DNA from: Bifidobacterium breve
GTDB lineage: Bacteria; Actinomycetota; Thermoleophilia; Solirubrobacterales; Solirubrobacteraceae
Reading direction: 5' to 3'
DNA length: 64,000 bases
Assembly (NCBI GenBank): GCA_945878865.1
Contig: CAMCUD010000002.1
Location: 1-64,000 of the forward strand
Shown here: positions 36,395 to 41,793 of the stretch, piece after piece
Layout: every line of letters starts with the position of its first letter
Position numbering within the stretch: position 1 is the stretch's first letter
Program-made: the position numbers and the translations under genes
Notes under the pieces: model-generated
What the model saw: only the letters and a program-made list of their open reading frames with translations
Databases searched by the model: none
What the model was told of the DNA's origin: nothing

Positions 36395-36706
36395 CTACGC
36401 GGGAGCGGCGCGCGGGGTCCGGCGCCGGAGCACGGCGGCGGCCCCGAACGCGAGGAGGAAGACCGTGACGGTTCCGGCGAGGCCCGCGGCGGCGGTCGCG
36501 CCACGGTCGCCGCCGACCCCGGGGAACGCGTAGCCGGGAACGGGAGCGTCCTCCTGCACCGGGTGGAGCGTCCCCGCCTCGTCGAAGCCCTGATCCATCG
36601 CGACGCGGTTCAGGCCGTCGGGCGACGACGACGCGAACGGCGAGGCCAGCGTCGCGAGGGCGATCGCGACGGCGAGTGCGAGCCCGATGAAGATCCCGAG
36701 CCTCAT
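36395..36706 (-). CDS. PDGLE-domain protein (CbiN-like metal uptake component)
   Basis: 103 residues: a membrane helix (IFIGLALAVAIALATLASPF), then SSSPDGLNRVAMDQGF, the PDGLE motif, a loop, and a second helix (GLAGTVTVFLLAFGAAAVL). The two-helix layout matches CbiN-type auxiliary subunits of cobalt and nickel ECF importers. Overlaps CbiM by ATGA. Confidence 0.88.
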   Translation of the reverse strand: MRLGIFIGLALAVAIALATLASPFASSSPDGLNRVAMDQGFDEAGTLHPVQEDAPVPGYAFPGVGGDRGATAAAGLAGTVTVFLLAFGAAAVLRRRTPRAAPA

Positions 36707-37353
36707 GCCGGGACCCCGGCTGCCCGCCGGCCGTCCACGAGATCCGGGCGCACGGCCAGGACGGACGCGACGACCGCGACGCTGATCGCCGCCTCGCCGA
36801 CGCCGATCAGCGCGTGGACGCTCAGCATGGCCGGCAGGACGGTCGCCAGCGGGATCGTTCCGGACACCGCCAGCTCGATCGACGTGGCGGTCGCGGCGGC
36901 GATGACCGAGACCCACGCGGCGACGGCGACCACGCCGAGCAGGCCGGAGGCGCGGGCGCGCAGGGCCTTCGTGCCGTCGAGCACGGCGGCGGTCACGAGC
37001 GAGCCGACGACGGCCATGTTCAGGGTGTTCGCTCCCAGCACCGCCACGCCACCGTCGGCGAACGCGAACGCCTGGACCCCGAGCACGACCGAGACGACGA
37101 GCATCCCGAGCCACGGCCCCAGCAGGACGGTGGCGAGCACCGCGCCGAGCAGGTGGCCGCTCGTCCCTCCGGCGACGTGGAAGTTCAGCATCTGCAGCGC
37201 GAAGACCATCGCGGCGGTCGCGCCGACGAGCGGGACGCGCGCCTCGTCGAGCTCGTCGCGCGCGCGGACCGCGGCGTAGCCGAGGATGCCGGCTGCGCCG
37301 ACGTTCGTCACGGCGCAGACCTCCGAGCTGAGGTAGCCGTCAGGGATGTGCAT
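36703..37353 (-). CDS. cbiM: CbiM-type cobalt/nickel ECF importer S-component
   Basis: 216 residues, six to seven helices. It begins MHIPDGYLS: the free N-terminus and His2 form the metal site in CbiM/NikM. LQMLNFHVAGGTSGHLLG supplies a further His ligand. Known: CbiM with CbiN alone can import cobalt at low rate. The CbiQ and CbiO energising genes are not in this operon. Overlaps the upstream Fur-family gene by 14 nt, and the start is fixed by the required MH N-terminus. Confidence 0.94.
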   Translation of the reverse strand: MHIPDGYLSSEVCAVTNVGAAGILGYAAVRARDELDEARVPLVGATAAMVFALQMLNFHVAGGTSGHLLGAVLATVLLGPWLGMLVVSVVLGVQAFAFADGGVAVLGANTLNMAVVGSLVTAAVLDGTKALRARASGLLGVVAVAAWVSVIAAATATSIELAVSGTIPLATVLPAMLSVHALIGVGEAAISVAVVASVLAVRPDLVDGRRAAGVPA

Positions 37354-37822
37354 GGTGAGCTTCTCCGGGTGCTGTGGTGGTCGCGCAGGCCGGACACAGC
37401 CCGACGAGCGGGAAGTGGCTGAACCGCGCCTCGTAGCCGAACGCCTCGCGCATGGCGGCGCGCACGCCGTCCATCCGCTCGGGTTCGACCGCCGTGTGCG
37501 TGCCGCAGCCGTCGCACACGAGGTGCTCACGCTGCGGCGCTCCTGCGAGGGCGTAGCGCCCCGGCCCATGGCCGAGGTGCGTGTGCCGCACGAGCCCGAT
37601 GCCCTCGAACGTCTCGAGGTTGCGGTAGACCGACGTGAGATCGCAGCGGCTGCCGAGCTGGTCGGCGAGCTCCTCCGCGGTGACCGCGCCGTCGGTGTGC
37701 AGCAGCGCGTCGAGGACCAGCCGACGCGGCCCGGTGACCCGTAGCCCGTGCTCGTGCAGCACCTCGACCGCGGCGCCGAGGTCGGCGACGGGGACGGGCG
37801 AGACGAGCGAGGCGGAGGTCAA
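37340..37822 (-). CDS. Fur-family metalloregulator
   Basis: About 160 residues. Winged helix: GLRVTGPRRLVLDALLHTD and CDLTSVYRNLETFEGIGLVRH. Zn-structural cysteines in LVCDGCGTH and LCPACATT, and sensor His/Glu residues in the C-terminal part, which ends in a His-rich tail (GEAHHAHP). Its linkage to cbiM suggests nickel or cobalt (Nur/Zur-like) control. The start TTG 37822 is tentative; an upstream dyad at 37847 supports transcription from about there. Confidence 0.9.
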   Translation of the reverse strand: MTSASLVSPVPVADLGAAVEVLHEHGLRVTGPRRLVLDALLHTDGAVTAEELADQLGSRCDLTSVYRNLETFEGIGLVRHTHLGHGPGRYALAGAPQREHLVCDGCGTHTAVEPERMDGVRAAMREAFGYEARFSHFPLVGLCPACATTTAPGEAHHAHP

Positions 37823-37861: not shown

Positions 37862-38012
37862 AGTGCGTCCCGGGGTGATCTGCGGGGTGATCGCGCACCA
37901 GGTGAGTGCCTACGTGCCAGTTTCGTGACATTCGTCCCCGGGCACGGTCTTCCCTGACGCGCGGCCCGCATCGCCGCGCTTCACTGGAGACACAGGGAAG
38001 GAGCCTCATCTC

Positions 38013-38804
38013 ATGCCATCCACCTTTCGCATGACCGCCGTCGCGCTCGGCGCGGCCGGCGCGCTCGGCGCCATCGCGGCGCCGGCTGGCGCCCACGGGG
38101 GCGGCGGCCTCGGCGTCGTCGTCGCCCAGAAGGACGCCGACACGTTCGTCGTCGCCAACCGCGGCGGCCAGCTGCGCGCGATCGACGCCGCGACCCCGCC
38201 GGCCGTCGGTTCGGTCGTGAAGGTCAAGGCGCGCAAGGGCGTCGCCAAGCGCATCCGCGTCGTCGGCACGGCGACGAAGGCTCGCATCCGCGGCATCGTC
38301 ACCACGAGCGCGGCAGACGCCTTCACGCTCACCGGCAAGCCTGACGACACGGCGGCGGTCGTCGTCAAGTACGCCGCGCCCCTGACGCAGCCCGGCCTGG
38401 GCCGCCGCCTGAGCGTCACGGTGACGATCTCCGGCTCGGATCTCACCGCGACCGGCGTGAAGACCGGCGGCTGCGAGGGCACCGAGGTCGAGGGCACGAT
38501 CACCGCGGTCGACACGGCGGCGCGCACGCTCACCCTCCAGCCCGAGAGCGGCACGCCCGTCGTCATCTCGGTGCCGGCGTCCGTCGATCTCGCGCAGTTC
38601 ACCGTCGGCGAGAAGGTCGAGCTGAAGGTCCTGCTGCAGGCCGACGGCACGTATGTCCTTCGCGGCGCCGATCGTCGCGGCGCCGGCGCGGACGATCACC
38701 CCAAGGGCGACGACCATCCCAACGGTGACGATCGTGGCCGCGGCCGTGGCAGCGACGACGACCAGAACGACGACCGGGGCCGTGGGCACGGCCGCGACGA
38801 CTAG
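38013..38804 (+). CDS. Secreted DUF5666-like protein with acidic/Arg-Gly tail
   Basis: 263 residues. Signal peptide (TAVALGAAGALGAIAAPAGA). Two beta-rich repeats follow, ending IRGIVTTSAADAFTLTG and VEGTITAVDTAARTLTLQ; the pattern IxGxVTxxxxxxFTLxG is typical of DUF5666. The last 40 residues are low-complexity Asp, His, Arg and Gly (GDDRGRGRGSDDDQND), possibly metal-binding or wall-associated. The next gene, 28 bp on, is an ECF sigma fusion whose tail has the same composition, so the two are probably one system. Confidence 0.8.
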   Translation: MPSTFRMTAVALGAAGALGAIAAPAGAHGGGGLGVVVAQKDADTFVVANRGGQLRAIDAATPPAVGSVVKVKARKGVAKRIRVVGTATKARIRGIVTTSAADAFTLTGKPDDTAAVVVKYAAPLTQPGLGRRLSVTVTISGSDLTATGVKTGGCEGTEVEGTITAVDTAARTLTLQPESGTPVVISVPASVDLAQFTVGEKVELKVLLQADGTYVLRGADRRGAGADDHPKGDDHPNGDDRGRGRGSDDDQNDDRGRGHGRDD

Positions 38805-38831: not shown

Positions 38832-40262
38832 ATGGCCGGCCTCCTCGCCGGGGCGCTGCTGCGCACACAGGACGACGAGCGACTCGCCGCCCTGGCCTCC
38901 GCCGGCCACGCCGGCGCGTTCGACGTGCTCGTCGCGCGCCACGAGCGCGCGCTGCGCGGCCTGGCGCGGCGTCTCGTCGGACAGGACGCCGCCGAGGACG
39001 TCACGCAGCAGGCGCTGCTGCGCGCGTGGACGGCCGTGCAGGCCGGCGCGCATGTGCGCCACCCGCGCGGCTGGCTGCACCGGATCGTCCGCACGACCGC
39101 CAGCGATCACCACGGGCACGCCATGGCTCACGACGACACCCCACTCGCCGACGACGTCCCCTCGGGGACCGACCTGCCGGCCGACGTGCAGGAGCGGATG
39201 GACGTCCGGCGCGCGCTCGAGCTCATCGCGGCGCTGCCCGACGAGCAGCGCGCCGCGGTGCTCGCGGCGGCGCAGGGGCGGGCGAACGCGGACGTCGCCG
39301 ACGAGCTCGGCATGAGCGAGGGCGCGGTGCGCCAGCTGGCCTACCGCGCGCGGACCGGGCTGCGTGCGGCGATGACGGCGATCACGCCCTACCCGCTGGC
39401 GGTGTGGGCCGCGCAGCGGATGGCCGGCGAGGGGGCCGCGATCGCGGCCGAGACCGTCGGCGCCGGCGGCAGCGTGCTCGGGGGTGCGCTGCTGGCGAAG
39501 GCCGGTGCCGTGGTCGCGGTCTCCGGCGTGGTGGTCGCGGGGGCCGCCACGGTGGAGCGCCCGCGCGGAGATCGCGCGGCGCGTGAGGACGGGAGTCCGG
39601 CGGCGGAGGCGGTGGCGCCCGCCCCGCCGCCGGCCCCGGCCGGGACGCGGTTCGTCGCGTCGACGATCGCATCCGCTGCGCTGCCGTCCGGTGCGAGCGC
39701 GTCGAAGGGGTCTCGGGAGAAGGCCCGCGAGGACCGCCGGCGCGAGCGCGACCGCGGGCGCGGCCGCGATGACGATCGGCGACAGGACGACGGCCACCGC
39801 GGGCACGGGAGCGGTGGATCGCCGGGATCCGGCCACCGCGACGAGGGCGACGACGACGTGACGCCGACCGCAGCGTCGGGTGGGGGAGACGACCGGCGCG
39901 GTGATCGCGGGCGGTCGGGTCGCGGCGGCGGGTCGGCGGATCGGGAGTCGGGCGGCCGAGGACACGACGACGCGCCCGAACGCGACTCGTCGCCCTCGTC
40001 CGGCAAGCACGGCTCCTCTGGCTCCTCAGGATCAGGCTCGTCAGGTTCCGGCTCGGGGAAGGACAAGGGCGAGGGCTCCTCCGGCGGCGATCGCGACGAG
40101 GCGCCCGCCCCGCAGGCGCCGGCTGCTGCGCCGCCGCCGACCGAAAGCGGGGGCGGCGGCAGCGAGAGCAGCGGCGATGACGGCGGCGGCGGATCCGGCT
40201 CGTCAGGATCTGGCGACAGCGGGTCGGGTGGATCGGGCAAGCACGGCGGCGATGACGGCTGA
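38832..40262 (+). CDS. ECF sigma factor fused to a membrane segment and disordered tail
   Basis: 476 residues. Residues 25-90 resemble sigma region 2 (FDVLVARHERALRGLARRL, GQDAAEDVTQQALLRAW) and 125-180 region 4 (ALPDEQRAAVLAAAQGRANA, MSEGAVRQLAYRARTGLR). Residues 212-240 (GSVLGGALLAKAGAVVAVSG) look like a transmembrane helix. From 243 to the end is a Gly/Ser/Asp/Arg/Pro-rich disordered region with no fold. Membrane-anchored ECF sigma factors release or expose their sigma part on a signal; the tail would lie outside. GAGGAGGT precedes ATG 38832. Confidence 0.85.
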   Translation: MAGLLAGALLRTQDDERLAALASAGHAGAFDVLVARHERALRGLARRLVGQDAAEDVTQQALLRAWTAVQAGAHVRHPRGWLHRIVRTTASDHHGHAMAHDDTPLADDVPSGTDLPADVQERMDVRRALELIAALPDEQRAAVLAAAQGRANADVADELGMSEGAVRQLAYRARTGLRAAMTAITPYPLAVWAAQRMAGEGAAIAAETVGAGGSVLGGALLAKAGAVVAVSGVVVAGAATVERPRGDRAAREDGSPAAEAVAPAPPPAPAGTRFVASTIASAALPSGASASKGSREKAREDRRRERDRGRGRDDDRRQDDGHRGHGSGGSPGSGHRDEGDDDVTPTAASGGGDDRRGDRGRSGRGGGSADRESGGRGHDDAPERDSSPSSGKHGSSGSSGSGSSGSGSGKDKGEGSSGGDRDEAPAPQAPAAAPPPTESGGGGSESSGDDGGGGSGSSGSGDSGSGGSGKHGGDDG

Positions 40263-40314: not shown

Positions 40315-41793
40315 GTGCGCTACGAGGAGTACGCCGAGCACGACGGCCTGGGACTGGCCGCGCTCGTGCGCGACAAGGAGGTCACGGCCCGGGAGCTGCT
40401 CGACATCGCGCGGGCGCGCGCGGACGCGGTCAACCCGACGATCAACGCGATCGTGCGCCGCATGGACGCCGACGCGGAAGCCCGAGCAGAAGGCCCGCTC
40501 GACGGTCCGTTCGCCGGCGTCCCGTTCCTCCTCAAGGACCTCGGCCAGGAGTACGCGGGCGTCCCGTCCACCTACGGCTGCCGCGCGCTGGCCCACGTGC
40601 CGGCCGCCGAGCACGCGACCGTCACGCAGCGCTGGCTCGACGCAGGCCTCAACCCGTTCGGCCGGACGAACGTTCCCGAGTTCGGCGCCAAGGGCGTCAC
40701 CGAGCCGGCGCTGTTCGGTCCCGCGCGCAACCCCTGGGGGCTCGAGCACACGCCCGGCGGCTCGTCAGGCGGATCGGCGGCTGCGGTCGGCGCCGGCATC
40801 GTGCCCGTCGCGGGCGCGTCGGACGGCGGCGGCTCCATCCGCATCCCCGCGGCATGCTGCGGGCTCGTCGGCCTGAAGACCAGCCGCGGGCTCATCCCGC
40901 TCGGCCCGGACGTCGGCGAGCCGCTGCAGGGCAGCGCGGTCAACGGCGTGGTCTCCCGCAGCGTGCGCGACACCGCCGCGATGATCGACATGCTCGCCGG
41001 CGCCGATCCGGTCTCGCCGTTCCTGCCCGGTCTCCCGGACCGTCCTCTTCTCGACGAGGTCGGCGCCGCGCCGGGGAAGCTGCGGATCGGTGTGCAGACG
41101 ACGTCGGCCGTGCGCGCGCAGGCCCATCCGGAGGCCATCCGTGCCGTCGAGGACGCCGCCGCGCTGCTCGCCGACCTCGGCCACGAGGTGGAGGAGACGC
41201 CCCGCGTCGTCGACGACAAGGCGCTGGCCCGCGACTTCCTCACGACGTGGTTCGCCCACATGGCCTACGAGGTGGGGGAGGTGATGCGCCGGACCGGCTC
41301 CGGGCCGGAGGGCTTCGAGCTCGACACGCGGATCATGGCCGCACTGGGCCGCTCGACGACCGCTGTCCAGCAGATCGCGGCGGTCGAGCGCCGGCACGAG
41401 TACGTCACCCAGCTCGCACGCTTCTTCGATGGACACGACCTCCTGCTGACGCCGACGCTCGCCGAGCCGCCGGTGAAGATCGGGACGATGTCGACGCCGA
41501 AGCTCGCGCAGGTGGGCGCCTCGCTCCTCCTGCGCCTGCGCGCGACGCGGGTCCTGCATCACCTCGACCTCGTCGACGACCTCATCGAGAAGAACCTCGG
41601 CTGGGTGCCGTTCACGCAGCTCGCGAACGTCACCGGGCGGCCCGCGATCAACGTGCCGCTGCGCTGGACACCCGCCGGGCTGCCGCTGGGCGTGCAGTTC
41701 GTCGCGCCGCTCGGCGGGGAGGCGACGCTCGTCCGTCTCGCCGCGCAGCTGGAGGAGGCGCGGCCGTGGGCGCAGCGGCGGGCTAGACTCTGA
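40315..41793 (+). CDS. Amidase signature (AS) family amidase
   Basis: 492 residues with the AS triad: Lys in PFLLKDLGQEYAGV, cis-Ser in PGGSSGGSAAAVG, and nucleophile Ser in ASDGGGSIRIPAACCGLVG. Closer to nylon oligomer/6-aminohexanoate-cyclic-dimer hydrolases and general amidases than to GatA; no gatB/gatC nearby. GTG 40315 follows GGGAGGAG. Its 3' end carries the promoter region of ssrA, whose transcript begins 18 bp after the stop. It belongs to the same family as the gene at 20768 but is clearly distinct. Confidence 0.92.
   Translation: MRYEEYAEHDGLGLAALVRDKEVTARELLDIARARADAVNPTINAIVRRMDADAEARAEGPLDGPFAGVPFLLKDLGQEYAGVPSTYGCRALAHVPAAEHATVTQRWLDAGLNPFGRTNVPEFGAKGVTEPALFGPARNPWGLEHTPGGSSGGSAAAVGAGIVPVAGASDGGGSIRIPAACCGLVGLKTSRGLIPLGPDVGEPLQGSAVNGVVSRSVRDTAAMIDMLAGADPVSPFLPGLPDRPLLDEVGAAPGKLRIGVQTTSAVRAQAHPEAIRAVEDAAALLADLGHEVEETPRVVDDKALARDFLTTWFAHMAYEVGEVMRRTGSGPEGFELDTRIMAALGRSTTAVQQIAAVERRHEYVTQLARFFDGHDLLLTPTLAEPPVKIGTMSTPKLAQVGASLLLRLRATRVLHHLDLVDDLIEKNLGWVPFTQLANVTGRPAINVPLRWTPAGLPLGVQFVAPLGGEATLVRLAAQLEEARPWAQRRARL

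What the first reader, a model, noticed from the sequence alone, without database searches (positions are those of the whole stretch)
38832..40262. Membrane-tethered ECF sigma factor with a 230-residue Gly/Ser/Asp/Arg tail
Sigma regions 2 and 4, then one helix, then a long disordered extracellular stretch with no anti-sigma domain. Tethering could keep the sigma factor inactive until proteolysis. The tail may sense wall tension, polyanions or metals. The tail composition (RGRGRDDD, SGSGSS) is shared with the secreted protein encoded just upstream.
Basis: partly seen in the sequence, partly recalled or inferred. Interest (0 to 1): 0.6.

Follow-up and report, generated by a model that had tools for sequence, protein, structure and literature searches.

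The report
Membrane-anchored sigma factor with secreted partner
A gene-switching protein (sigma factor) in a Solirubrobacterales bacterium appears to be built into the cell membrane with a long floppy tail outside and no inhibitor domain, and across its order it is often encoded next to, and seems to switch on, a secreted partner protein with a similar floppy tail, which points to a little-studied way for bacteria to sense their surface.

Summary
The ORF is real: sigma region 2, region 4, one small-residue transmembrane helix, then a 236-residue Gly/Ser/Asp/Arg tail, with no anti-sigma domain. It belongs to a family found here only in the order Solirubrobacterales; nearly all of about 65 members have the helix and a 120-330-residue disordered tail. 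On a tree they separate from equally common paralogs that carry a Hx3Cx2C anti-sigma signature. Three new points. (1) The upstream secreted protein is a conserved partner: an OB-fold or TSP3/beta protein with its own Asp-rich disordered stretch lies within 1 kb of 17 of 35 members recruited by sigma similarity alone, against 0 of 39 zinc-finger paralogs (Fisher 2e-7). (2) Tail and partner compositions co-vary locus by locus (p=0.0002 after thinning relatives). (3) A shared ECF-type promoter, GCGTGAnC..GTCTTA, precedes the operon; in the window it lies at 37924-37950 and is the only intergenic strict match ahead of a gene in this genome. Best reading: an autoregulated operon whose tethered sigma factor is freed by intramembrane proteolysis, with the secreted partner acting outside. 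Release and signal are inferred. New variant of the fused-extension ECF kind; not ECF52.

The parts
37924..37950 (+). ECF-type promoter candidate CGTGACATTCGTCCCCGGGCACGGTCT (-35 CGTGAC, -10 GTCT) upstream of the partner-sigma operon
   Evidence: family motif found de novo in both halves of the upstream set; only intergenic strict match with a gene downstream in the genome; GTGAC and GTC[TA]T cores kept in two congeners
38013..38804 (+). partner gene: secreted multi-OB-fold (DUF5666-like) protein, 263 aa, with Asp/Arg/Gly/His-rich disordered C-terminal tail
   Evidence: signal peptide with A-G-A site read directly; AlphaFold2 beta domains 32-216 and Foldseek hits to multi-OB proteins; homologs beside the sigma gene in relatives
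38670..38801 (+). disordered Asp/Arg/Gly/His tail of the partner
   Evidence: pLDDT below 50; composition matches the sigma tail
38832..40262 (+). membrane-anchored ECF sigma factor, 476 aa
38928..39113 (+). sigma region 2 (res. 33-94)
   Evidence: Pfam PF04542 5.6e-11
39213..39353 (+). sigma region 4 (res. 128-174)
   Evidence: Pfam PF08281 1e-9
39390..39455 (+). linker helix 187-208 behind the invariant Pro (P186) of the [IVL]TPxPL motif
   Evidence: P186 invariant in 45 homologs; helix in the model
39483..39551 (+). transmembrane helix (about res. 218-240), Gly/Ala/Val-rich, with a conserved K/R at its cytoplasmic edge (K223 nearly invariant in 20 homologs)
39552..40259 (+). disordered, presumably extracytoplasmic tail (res. 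241-476), Gly/Ser/Asp/Arg

Best explanation
A two-gene, autoregulated surface-sensing operon. Gene 1 makes a secreted OB-fold protein with a charged disordered tail. Gene 2 makes an ECF sigma factor held in the cytoplasmic membrane as a type II protein: sigma domains inside, one small-residue helix, disordered tail outside. There is no anti-sigma domain, so control is by location. Most likely the signal changes how the tail and the secreted partner meet at the wall, a protease trims the tail near the membrane, and a site-2 protease cuts the Gly/Ala-rich helix. The freed sigma domain then directs RNA polymerase to its own promoter (GCGTGAnC..GTCTTA), making more partner and more sigma factor; the partner would feed back on the outside, as RseB does on RseA. 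Shown here: architecture, family, pairing, co-varying tails, shared promoter motif. Inferred: topology, proteolysis, direct tail-partner contact, direction of feedback, signal.
For: Architecture kept in nearly all homologs. Partner within 1 kb in 17/35 family members against 0/39 zinc-finger paralogs among loci recruited by sigma similarity alone, Fisher 2e-7, all 17 on the same strand. The nine-member clade holding the window has a detected partner in eight. Partner is a multi-OB protein with a readable signal peptide. Tail and partner compositions co-vary: no permutation of 5000 as high for 33 loci, p=0.0002 for 14 thinned loci, 0.0016 after regressing locus GC; since the partner is secreted, this favours the tail being outside. 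The promoter motif emerges independently from both halves of the upstream set and is found in 37-43% of held-out operons at a cut-off passed by 5% of other genes and 4-13% of zinc-finger paralogs. In this genome 10 places match the strict pattern and only the operon's own is intergenic before a gene; among the relatives' strict matches the one intergenic match with a gene called right behind it is the same operon in G026.
Against: Flanking charges do not favour either orientation (net +0.1 before, +0.4 after the helix over 65 members). About half of the family has no detected partner in the stretch held, partly because contigs end. Membrane tethering alone need not silence a sigma factor. Site-2-protease presence is universal. 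No protease, signal or contact is shown. The strict promoter pattern was drawn partly from the window's own site, so that match is by construction.
Confidence: 0.5

Rival explanations
1. The sigma factor works while still in the membrane, like the membrane-bound activators ToxR and CadC: RNA polymerase is recruited to the tethered sigma factor and the tail only anchors or positions it.
For: No anti-sigma domain anywhere; sigma domains look intact with the usual conserved positions; about 36 residues of linker give reach.
Against: Would leave the sigma factor constantly active; a conserved 120-330-residue tail and a dedicated secreted partner suggest regulation.
Confidence: 0.2
2. The short linker with the TPxPL motif and helix 187-208 is a minimal built-in inhibitor that blocks region 4 or the region 2-4 cleft, perhaps a remnant of the zinc-finger anti-sigma domain of the paralogs; the membrane and tail relay the signal to it.
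For: P186 invariant in 45 homologs; helix predicted directly after region 4; paralogs carry Hx3Cx2C there.
Against: Only about 36 residues separate region 4 from the membrane, too few for a three-helix class I anti-sigma domain; domain packing is not resolved (pTM 0.45); no sign which state is ancestral.
Confidence: 0.2
3. The tail is neutral low-complexity sequence grown from GC-rich repeats, and the likeness to the neighbour only reflects genome composition.
For: High-GC genome; tail evolves fast (Gly/Ser/Asp/Arg in the window, Arg/Lys/Glu/Pro in G002).
Against: Length 119-332 aa (5th-95th percentile) with over 90% disorder-promoting residues in 65 members; composition co-varies with the specific partner after thinning relatives and regressing GC; the partner is tied to this family and not to the paralogs.
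Confidence: 0.1

Closest known systems
ECF52 (SCO4117 of Streptomyces coelicolor)
   Same: Actinobacterial ECF sigma factor with C-terminal membrane helix and long low-complexity extracytoplasmic extension; proposed release by proteolysis; suggested autoregulation (PMC5826349, PMC8999054)
   Different: ECF52 has a zinc-finger domain, a proline-rich stretch and a carbohydrate-binding domain, all absent here; no OB/TSP3 partner gene described
ECF48 and ECF53
   Same: Actinobacterial ECFs with C-terminal membrane extensions expected to act by proteolysis (PMC8999054)
   Different: Described as carrying a zinc-finger anti-sigma-like domain with one or two membrane helices
IutY of Pseudomonas putida (ECF243)
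   Same: Sigma and membrane part in one protein; RIP by Prc and RseP frees the sigma domain; truncated form constitutively active (PMC8999054)
   Different: Fused anti-sigma factor working with a cell-surface signalling system for aerobactin; a different extension
RpoE-RseA-RseB
   Same: A secreted protein encoded in the sigma operon acts on the outer side of the membrane regulator (PMC8103513)
   Different: There the membrane protein is a separate anti-sigma factor; no relation between RseB and the OB partner was tested or expected
Zinc-finger (Hx3Cx2C) ECF-TM paralogs of the same order, e.g. L061 and L063 in this genome
   Same: Related sigma domain, Gly/Ala linker, K-plus-small-residue membrane helix, long disordered tail
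   Different: Carry the anti-sigma signature, have mostly Ala/Pro/Thr-rich tails, and lack the OB partner

Membership tests
ECF sigma factor | sigma regions 2 and 4 as the only sigma regions | tested here: met
   Pfam regions 2 and 4, NCBIfam sigma70-ECF TIGR02937 above cut-off; fold match to ECF sigma factors
ECF52 | zinc-finger anti-sigma domain after region 4 | tested here: not met
   no Pfam match and no Hx3Cx2C
ECF52 | carbohydrate-binding domain at the C-terminus | tested here: not met
   no Pfam match after residue 181; tail is low complexity
ECF52 | proline-rich extension | tested here: not met
   tail is Gly 24, Ser 17, Asp 12, Ala 11, Arg 11 percent; proline is not among the five commonest residues
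ECF52 | transmembrane helix after the sigma domains | tested here: met
   one helix, KD 1.98; from sequence only, topology not measured
ECF activated by proteolysis of a fused extension | released sigma domain is the active form | not testable with these tools
   needs an experiment
ECF activated by proteolysis of a fused extension | extension that resembles an anti-sigma factor | tested here: not met
   no domain match; only about 36 residues before the membrane
numbered ECF group of the 2021 classification | score against the group models | not testable with these tools
   the classification paper is not held and its models are not on hand
DUF5666 (partner protein) | Pfam gathering score of 27 bits | tested here: not met
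   15.2 bits for the window copy; 3 of 5 homologs match at E<=0.1, best 1.1e-6; OB-type fold by model

The most novel reading that the evidence does not exclude
A whole class of ECF sigma factors that has done away with the anti-sigma domain: inhibition by membrane anchoring alone, sensing by a disordered tail that is matched to, and perhaps interacts with, a secreted OB-fold or TSP3 polyelectrolyte protein, which is itself the main target of the sigma factor, forming a closed sensing loop at the cell wall.
Probability: 0.35. Interest if true: 0.75.

Novelty: new variant of a known kind. Interest (0 to 1): 0.6.

Why it matters
Reviews list fused-extension ECF groups as expected to work by proteolysis, but most are unstudied and those described carry an anti-sigma-like domain. 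This family lacks one, so it tests directly whether membrane anchoring alone can silence a sigma factor. The linked secreted partner with a co-varying disordered tail, and a shared promoter, give concrete handles: two genes, one promoter, and named isolates (Conexibacter arvalis, Conexibacter sp. S30A1, Solirubrobacter soli) in which to look. It may also be a case in which disordered segments of two different proteins co-evolve in composition.

Tried and rejected
Frame breaks in both congeners (G001 just before the membrane helix, G002 between regions 2 and 4) first looked like a possible switch to a soluble sigma factor; rejected because a neighbouring conserved gene is also broken in each genome. 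Metal sensing through the adjacent Fur-like and CbiMN genes: these neighbours are conserved only within the genus, so they are not part of the module. The DUF5666 model found nothing in the own genome at E<=0.001, so the Pfam label is too weak to use; family-specific alignments A2 and A3 were used instead. A2 and A3 could not be shown homologous to each other (hhalign probability under 1%), so the two partner types may be analogous. Two promoter pattern scans used a wrong spacer of 9-12 and were repeated with 13-15. A first dyad count with pooled spacings was swamped by GC repeats. A regulon beyond the operon itself was not found with the strict pattern. Literature searches found no description of this architecture in the order; DUF5666 gave four papers with passing mentions.

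Full report
WHAT IS THERE. The ORF at 38832-40262 encodes 476 residues with a clear ribosome site and sits 27 bases behind the stop of the upstream gene. Sigma regions 2 and 4 pass Pfam's gathering scores and no other domain is found; sigma factors are the relatives with solved structures. After region 4 come about 36 residues, one Gly/Ala/Val-rich helix of KD 1.98, and about 236 residues of mainly Gly, Ser, Asp, Ala and Arg with almost no hydrophobic residues. AlphaFold2 on 45 homologs models the sigma domains well, then a separate helix 187-208 and the membrane helix 222-238; the arrangement of domains is not resolved, pTM 0.45. Region 2 matches solved ECF region 2 at TM 0.83-0.86.

THE FAMILY. 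Searches of 61 genomes, the named genome collection, 119 genomes of the class and 296 of the phylum gave strong matches (E below 1e-70) reaching through the membrane helix only within the same order; named members include Conexibacter arvalis, Conexibacter sp. S30A1, Solirubrobacter soli and Paraconexibacter antarcticus. More distant groups have other ECF-TM proteins with different tails, so the broad layout is wider than this family. Among complete homologs of both types 95 of 100 have the helix and 90 have a tail over 100 residues. Invariant positions include P186 of the TPxPL motif just behind region 4.

TWO SISTER TYPES. About 46 relatives carry Hx3Cx2C, the signature used in the literature for zinc-binding class I anti-sigma domains (PMC7406223), between region 4 and the helix; Pfam does not recognise a zinc finger in the two own-genome copies tested, so the assignment rests on the motif. 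On a tree of sigma domains the two types need only two changes of state against about 36 in shuffles. The root is unknown, so loss or gain of the motif cannot be told apart.

THE PARTNER. The upstream gene encodes a protein with a signal peptide (read directly), modelled as several OB-type beta domains and a disordered Asp/Arg/Gly/His tail, with Foldseek hits to multi-OB proteins such as bS1 and cold-shock-domain arrays at low overall TM-score. Relatives carry either this type (alignments A3, A5) or a second type with TSP3-like repeats and a beta domain split by an Asp-rich stretch (A2). Both alignments were built from neighbours of the sigma gene, so the fair test uses loci recruited by sigma similarity alone: a partner lies within 1 kb in 17 of 35 family members and 0 of 39 zinc-finger paralogs, Fisher 2e-7. 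Genome-wide searches with A2 also landed beside sigma genes at loci not used to build it, for example G034:C28, G035:C9, G012:C250, G038:C10, G040:C1, G042:C24, G048:C46 and G051:C20. Other A2 matches had no such sigma gene nearby, so the partner domain also occurs alone.

MATCHED TAILS. Over 33 pairs the composition of the sigma tail correlates with that of the partner's disordered stretch (mean 0.37, null 0 +/- 0.058, no permutation in 5000 as high). With one locus per group of sigma domains over 55% identical, 14 pairs remain, the mean is 0.29 and p=0.0002; with locus GC regressed out p=0.0016. Genome-wide biases other than GC are not excluded.

THE PROMOTER. Hexamer counts upstream of the operons pointed to GCGTGA and GTCTTA-like words, with near-fixed spacing. 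A two-block matrix gives nGCGTGAnn-N11-16-GnGTCTTnn. Trained from random starts on either half, it recovers the same words and marks 37% and 43% of the held-out half at a cut-off that 5% of other genes pass. The window's copy is CGTGACATTCGTCCCCGGGCACGGTCT at 37924-37950. Of ten strict matches in the genome, this is the only intergenic one ahead of a gene. The window's match is partly by construction; the informative part is that no other gene in the genome has such a site.

HOW IT WORKS. The sigma domains must act inside, so with one membrane helix the tail should be outside; flanking charges neither support nor contradict this. A helix rich in Gly and Ala in an N-in, C-out protein is the kind that site-2 proteases cut (established knowledge of RseA-type substrates), and the genome has such proteases, as nearly all do. 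I therefore favour release by intramembrane proteolysis with autoregulation, and a partner that acts outside by analogy with RseB. Proteolysis, contact and signal are inference. Rivals are activity at the membrane, or a mini-inhibitor in the 187-208 helix.

COMPARISON WITH THE KNOWN. The nearest described kind is the set of actinobacterial ECFs with membrane-spanning extensions, ECF48, ECF52 and ECF53, said to carry zinc-finger anti-sigma domains and expected to act by proteolysis (PMC8999054; PMC5826349). This protein fails the ECF52 tests for zinc finger, proline-rich stretch and carbohydrate-binding domain. IutY shows that release of a sigma domain from a fused membrane part works in principle (PMC8999054). 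The literature searches that could be run found no description of a family without the zinc finger and with a dedicated secreted partner; subscription papers and the 2021 classification were not available.

Noticed in passing
36395-37822 (-): Fur-family regulator followed by CbiM-like and CbiN-like cobalt/nickel transport genes, divergent from the partner gene; order kept in both congeners but not seen in other genera.
   Followed up: partly
37870-37895: Two direct GGGGTGAT repeats between the Fur-like gene and the ECF-type promoter, conserved in both congeners; possibly an operator for the Fur-like regulator.
   Followed up: no
40315-41793 (+): Amidase-signature gene starting 52 bases behind the sigma gene; kept there in both congeners, so perhaps co-transcribed in this genus only.
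   Followed up: partly
L081 2212-8773: Genome G048 (another family of the order) has three ECF-TM-tail genes and two TSP3/beta secreted genes interleaved in one cluster of about 7 kb.
   Followed up: partly
L033, L034, L036, L038: In several relatives the sigma gene follows an M16-type zinc peptidase gene, and nadA lies on the other side in some; the peptidase could be examined as a site-1 protease.
   Followed up: no
L039, L091, L103, L114: A zinc-finger ECF-TM paralog lies beside the partner-sigma pair on the opposite strand in four related genomes.
   Followed up: partly
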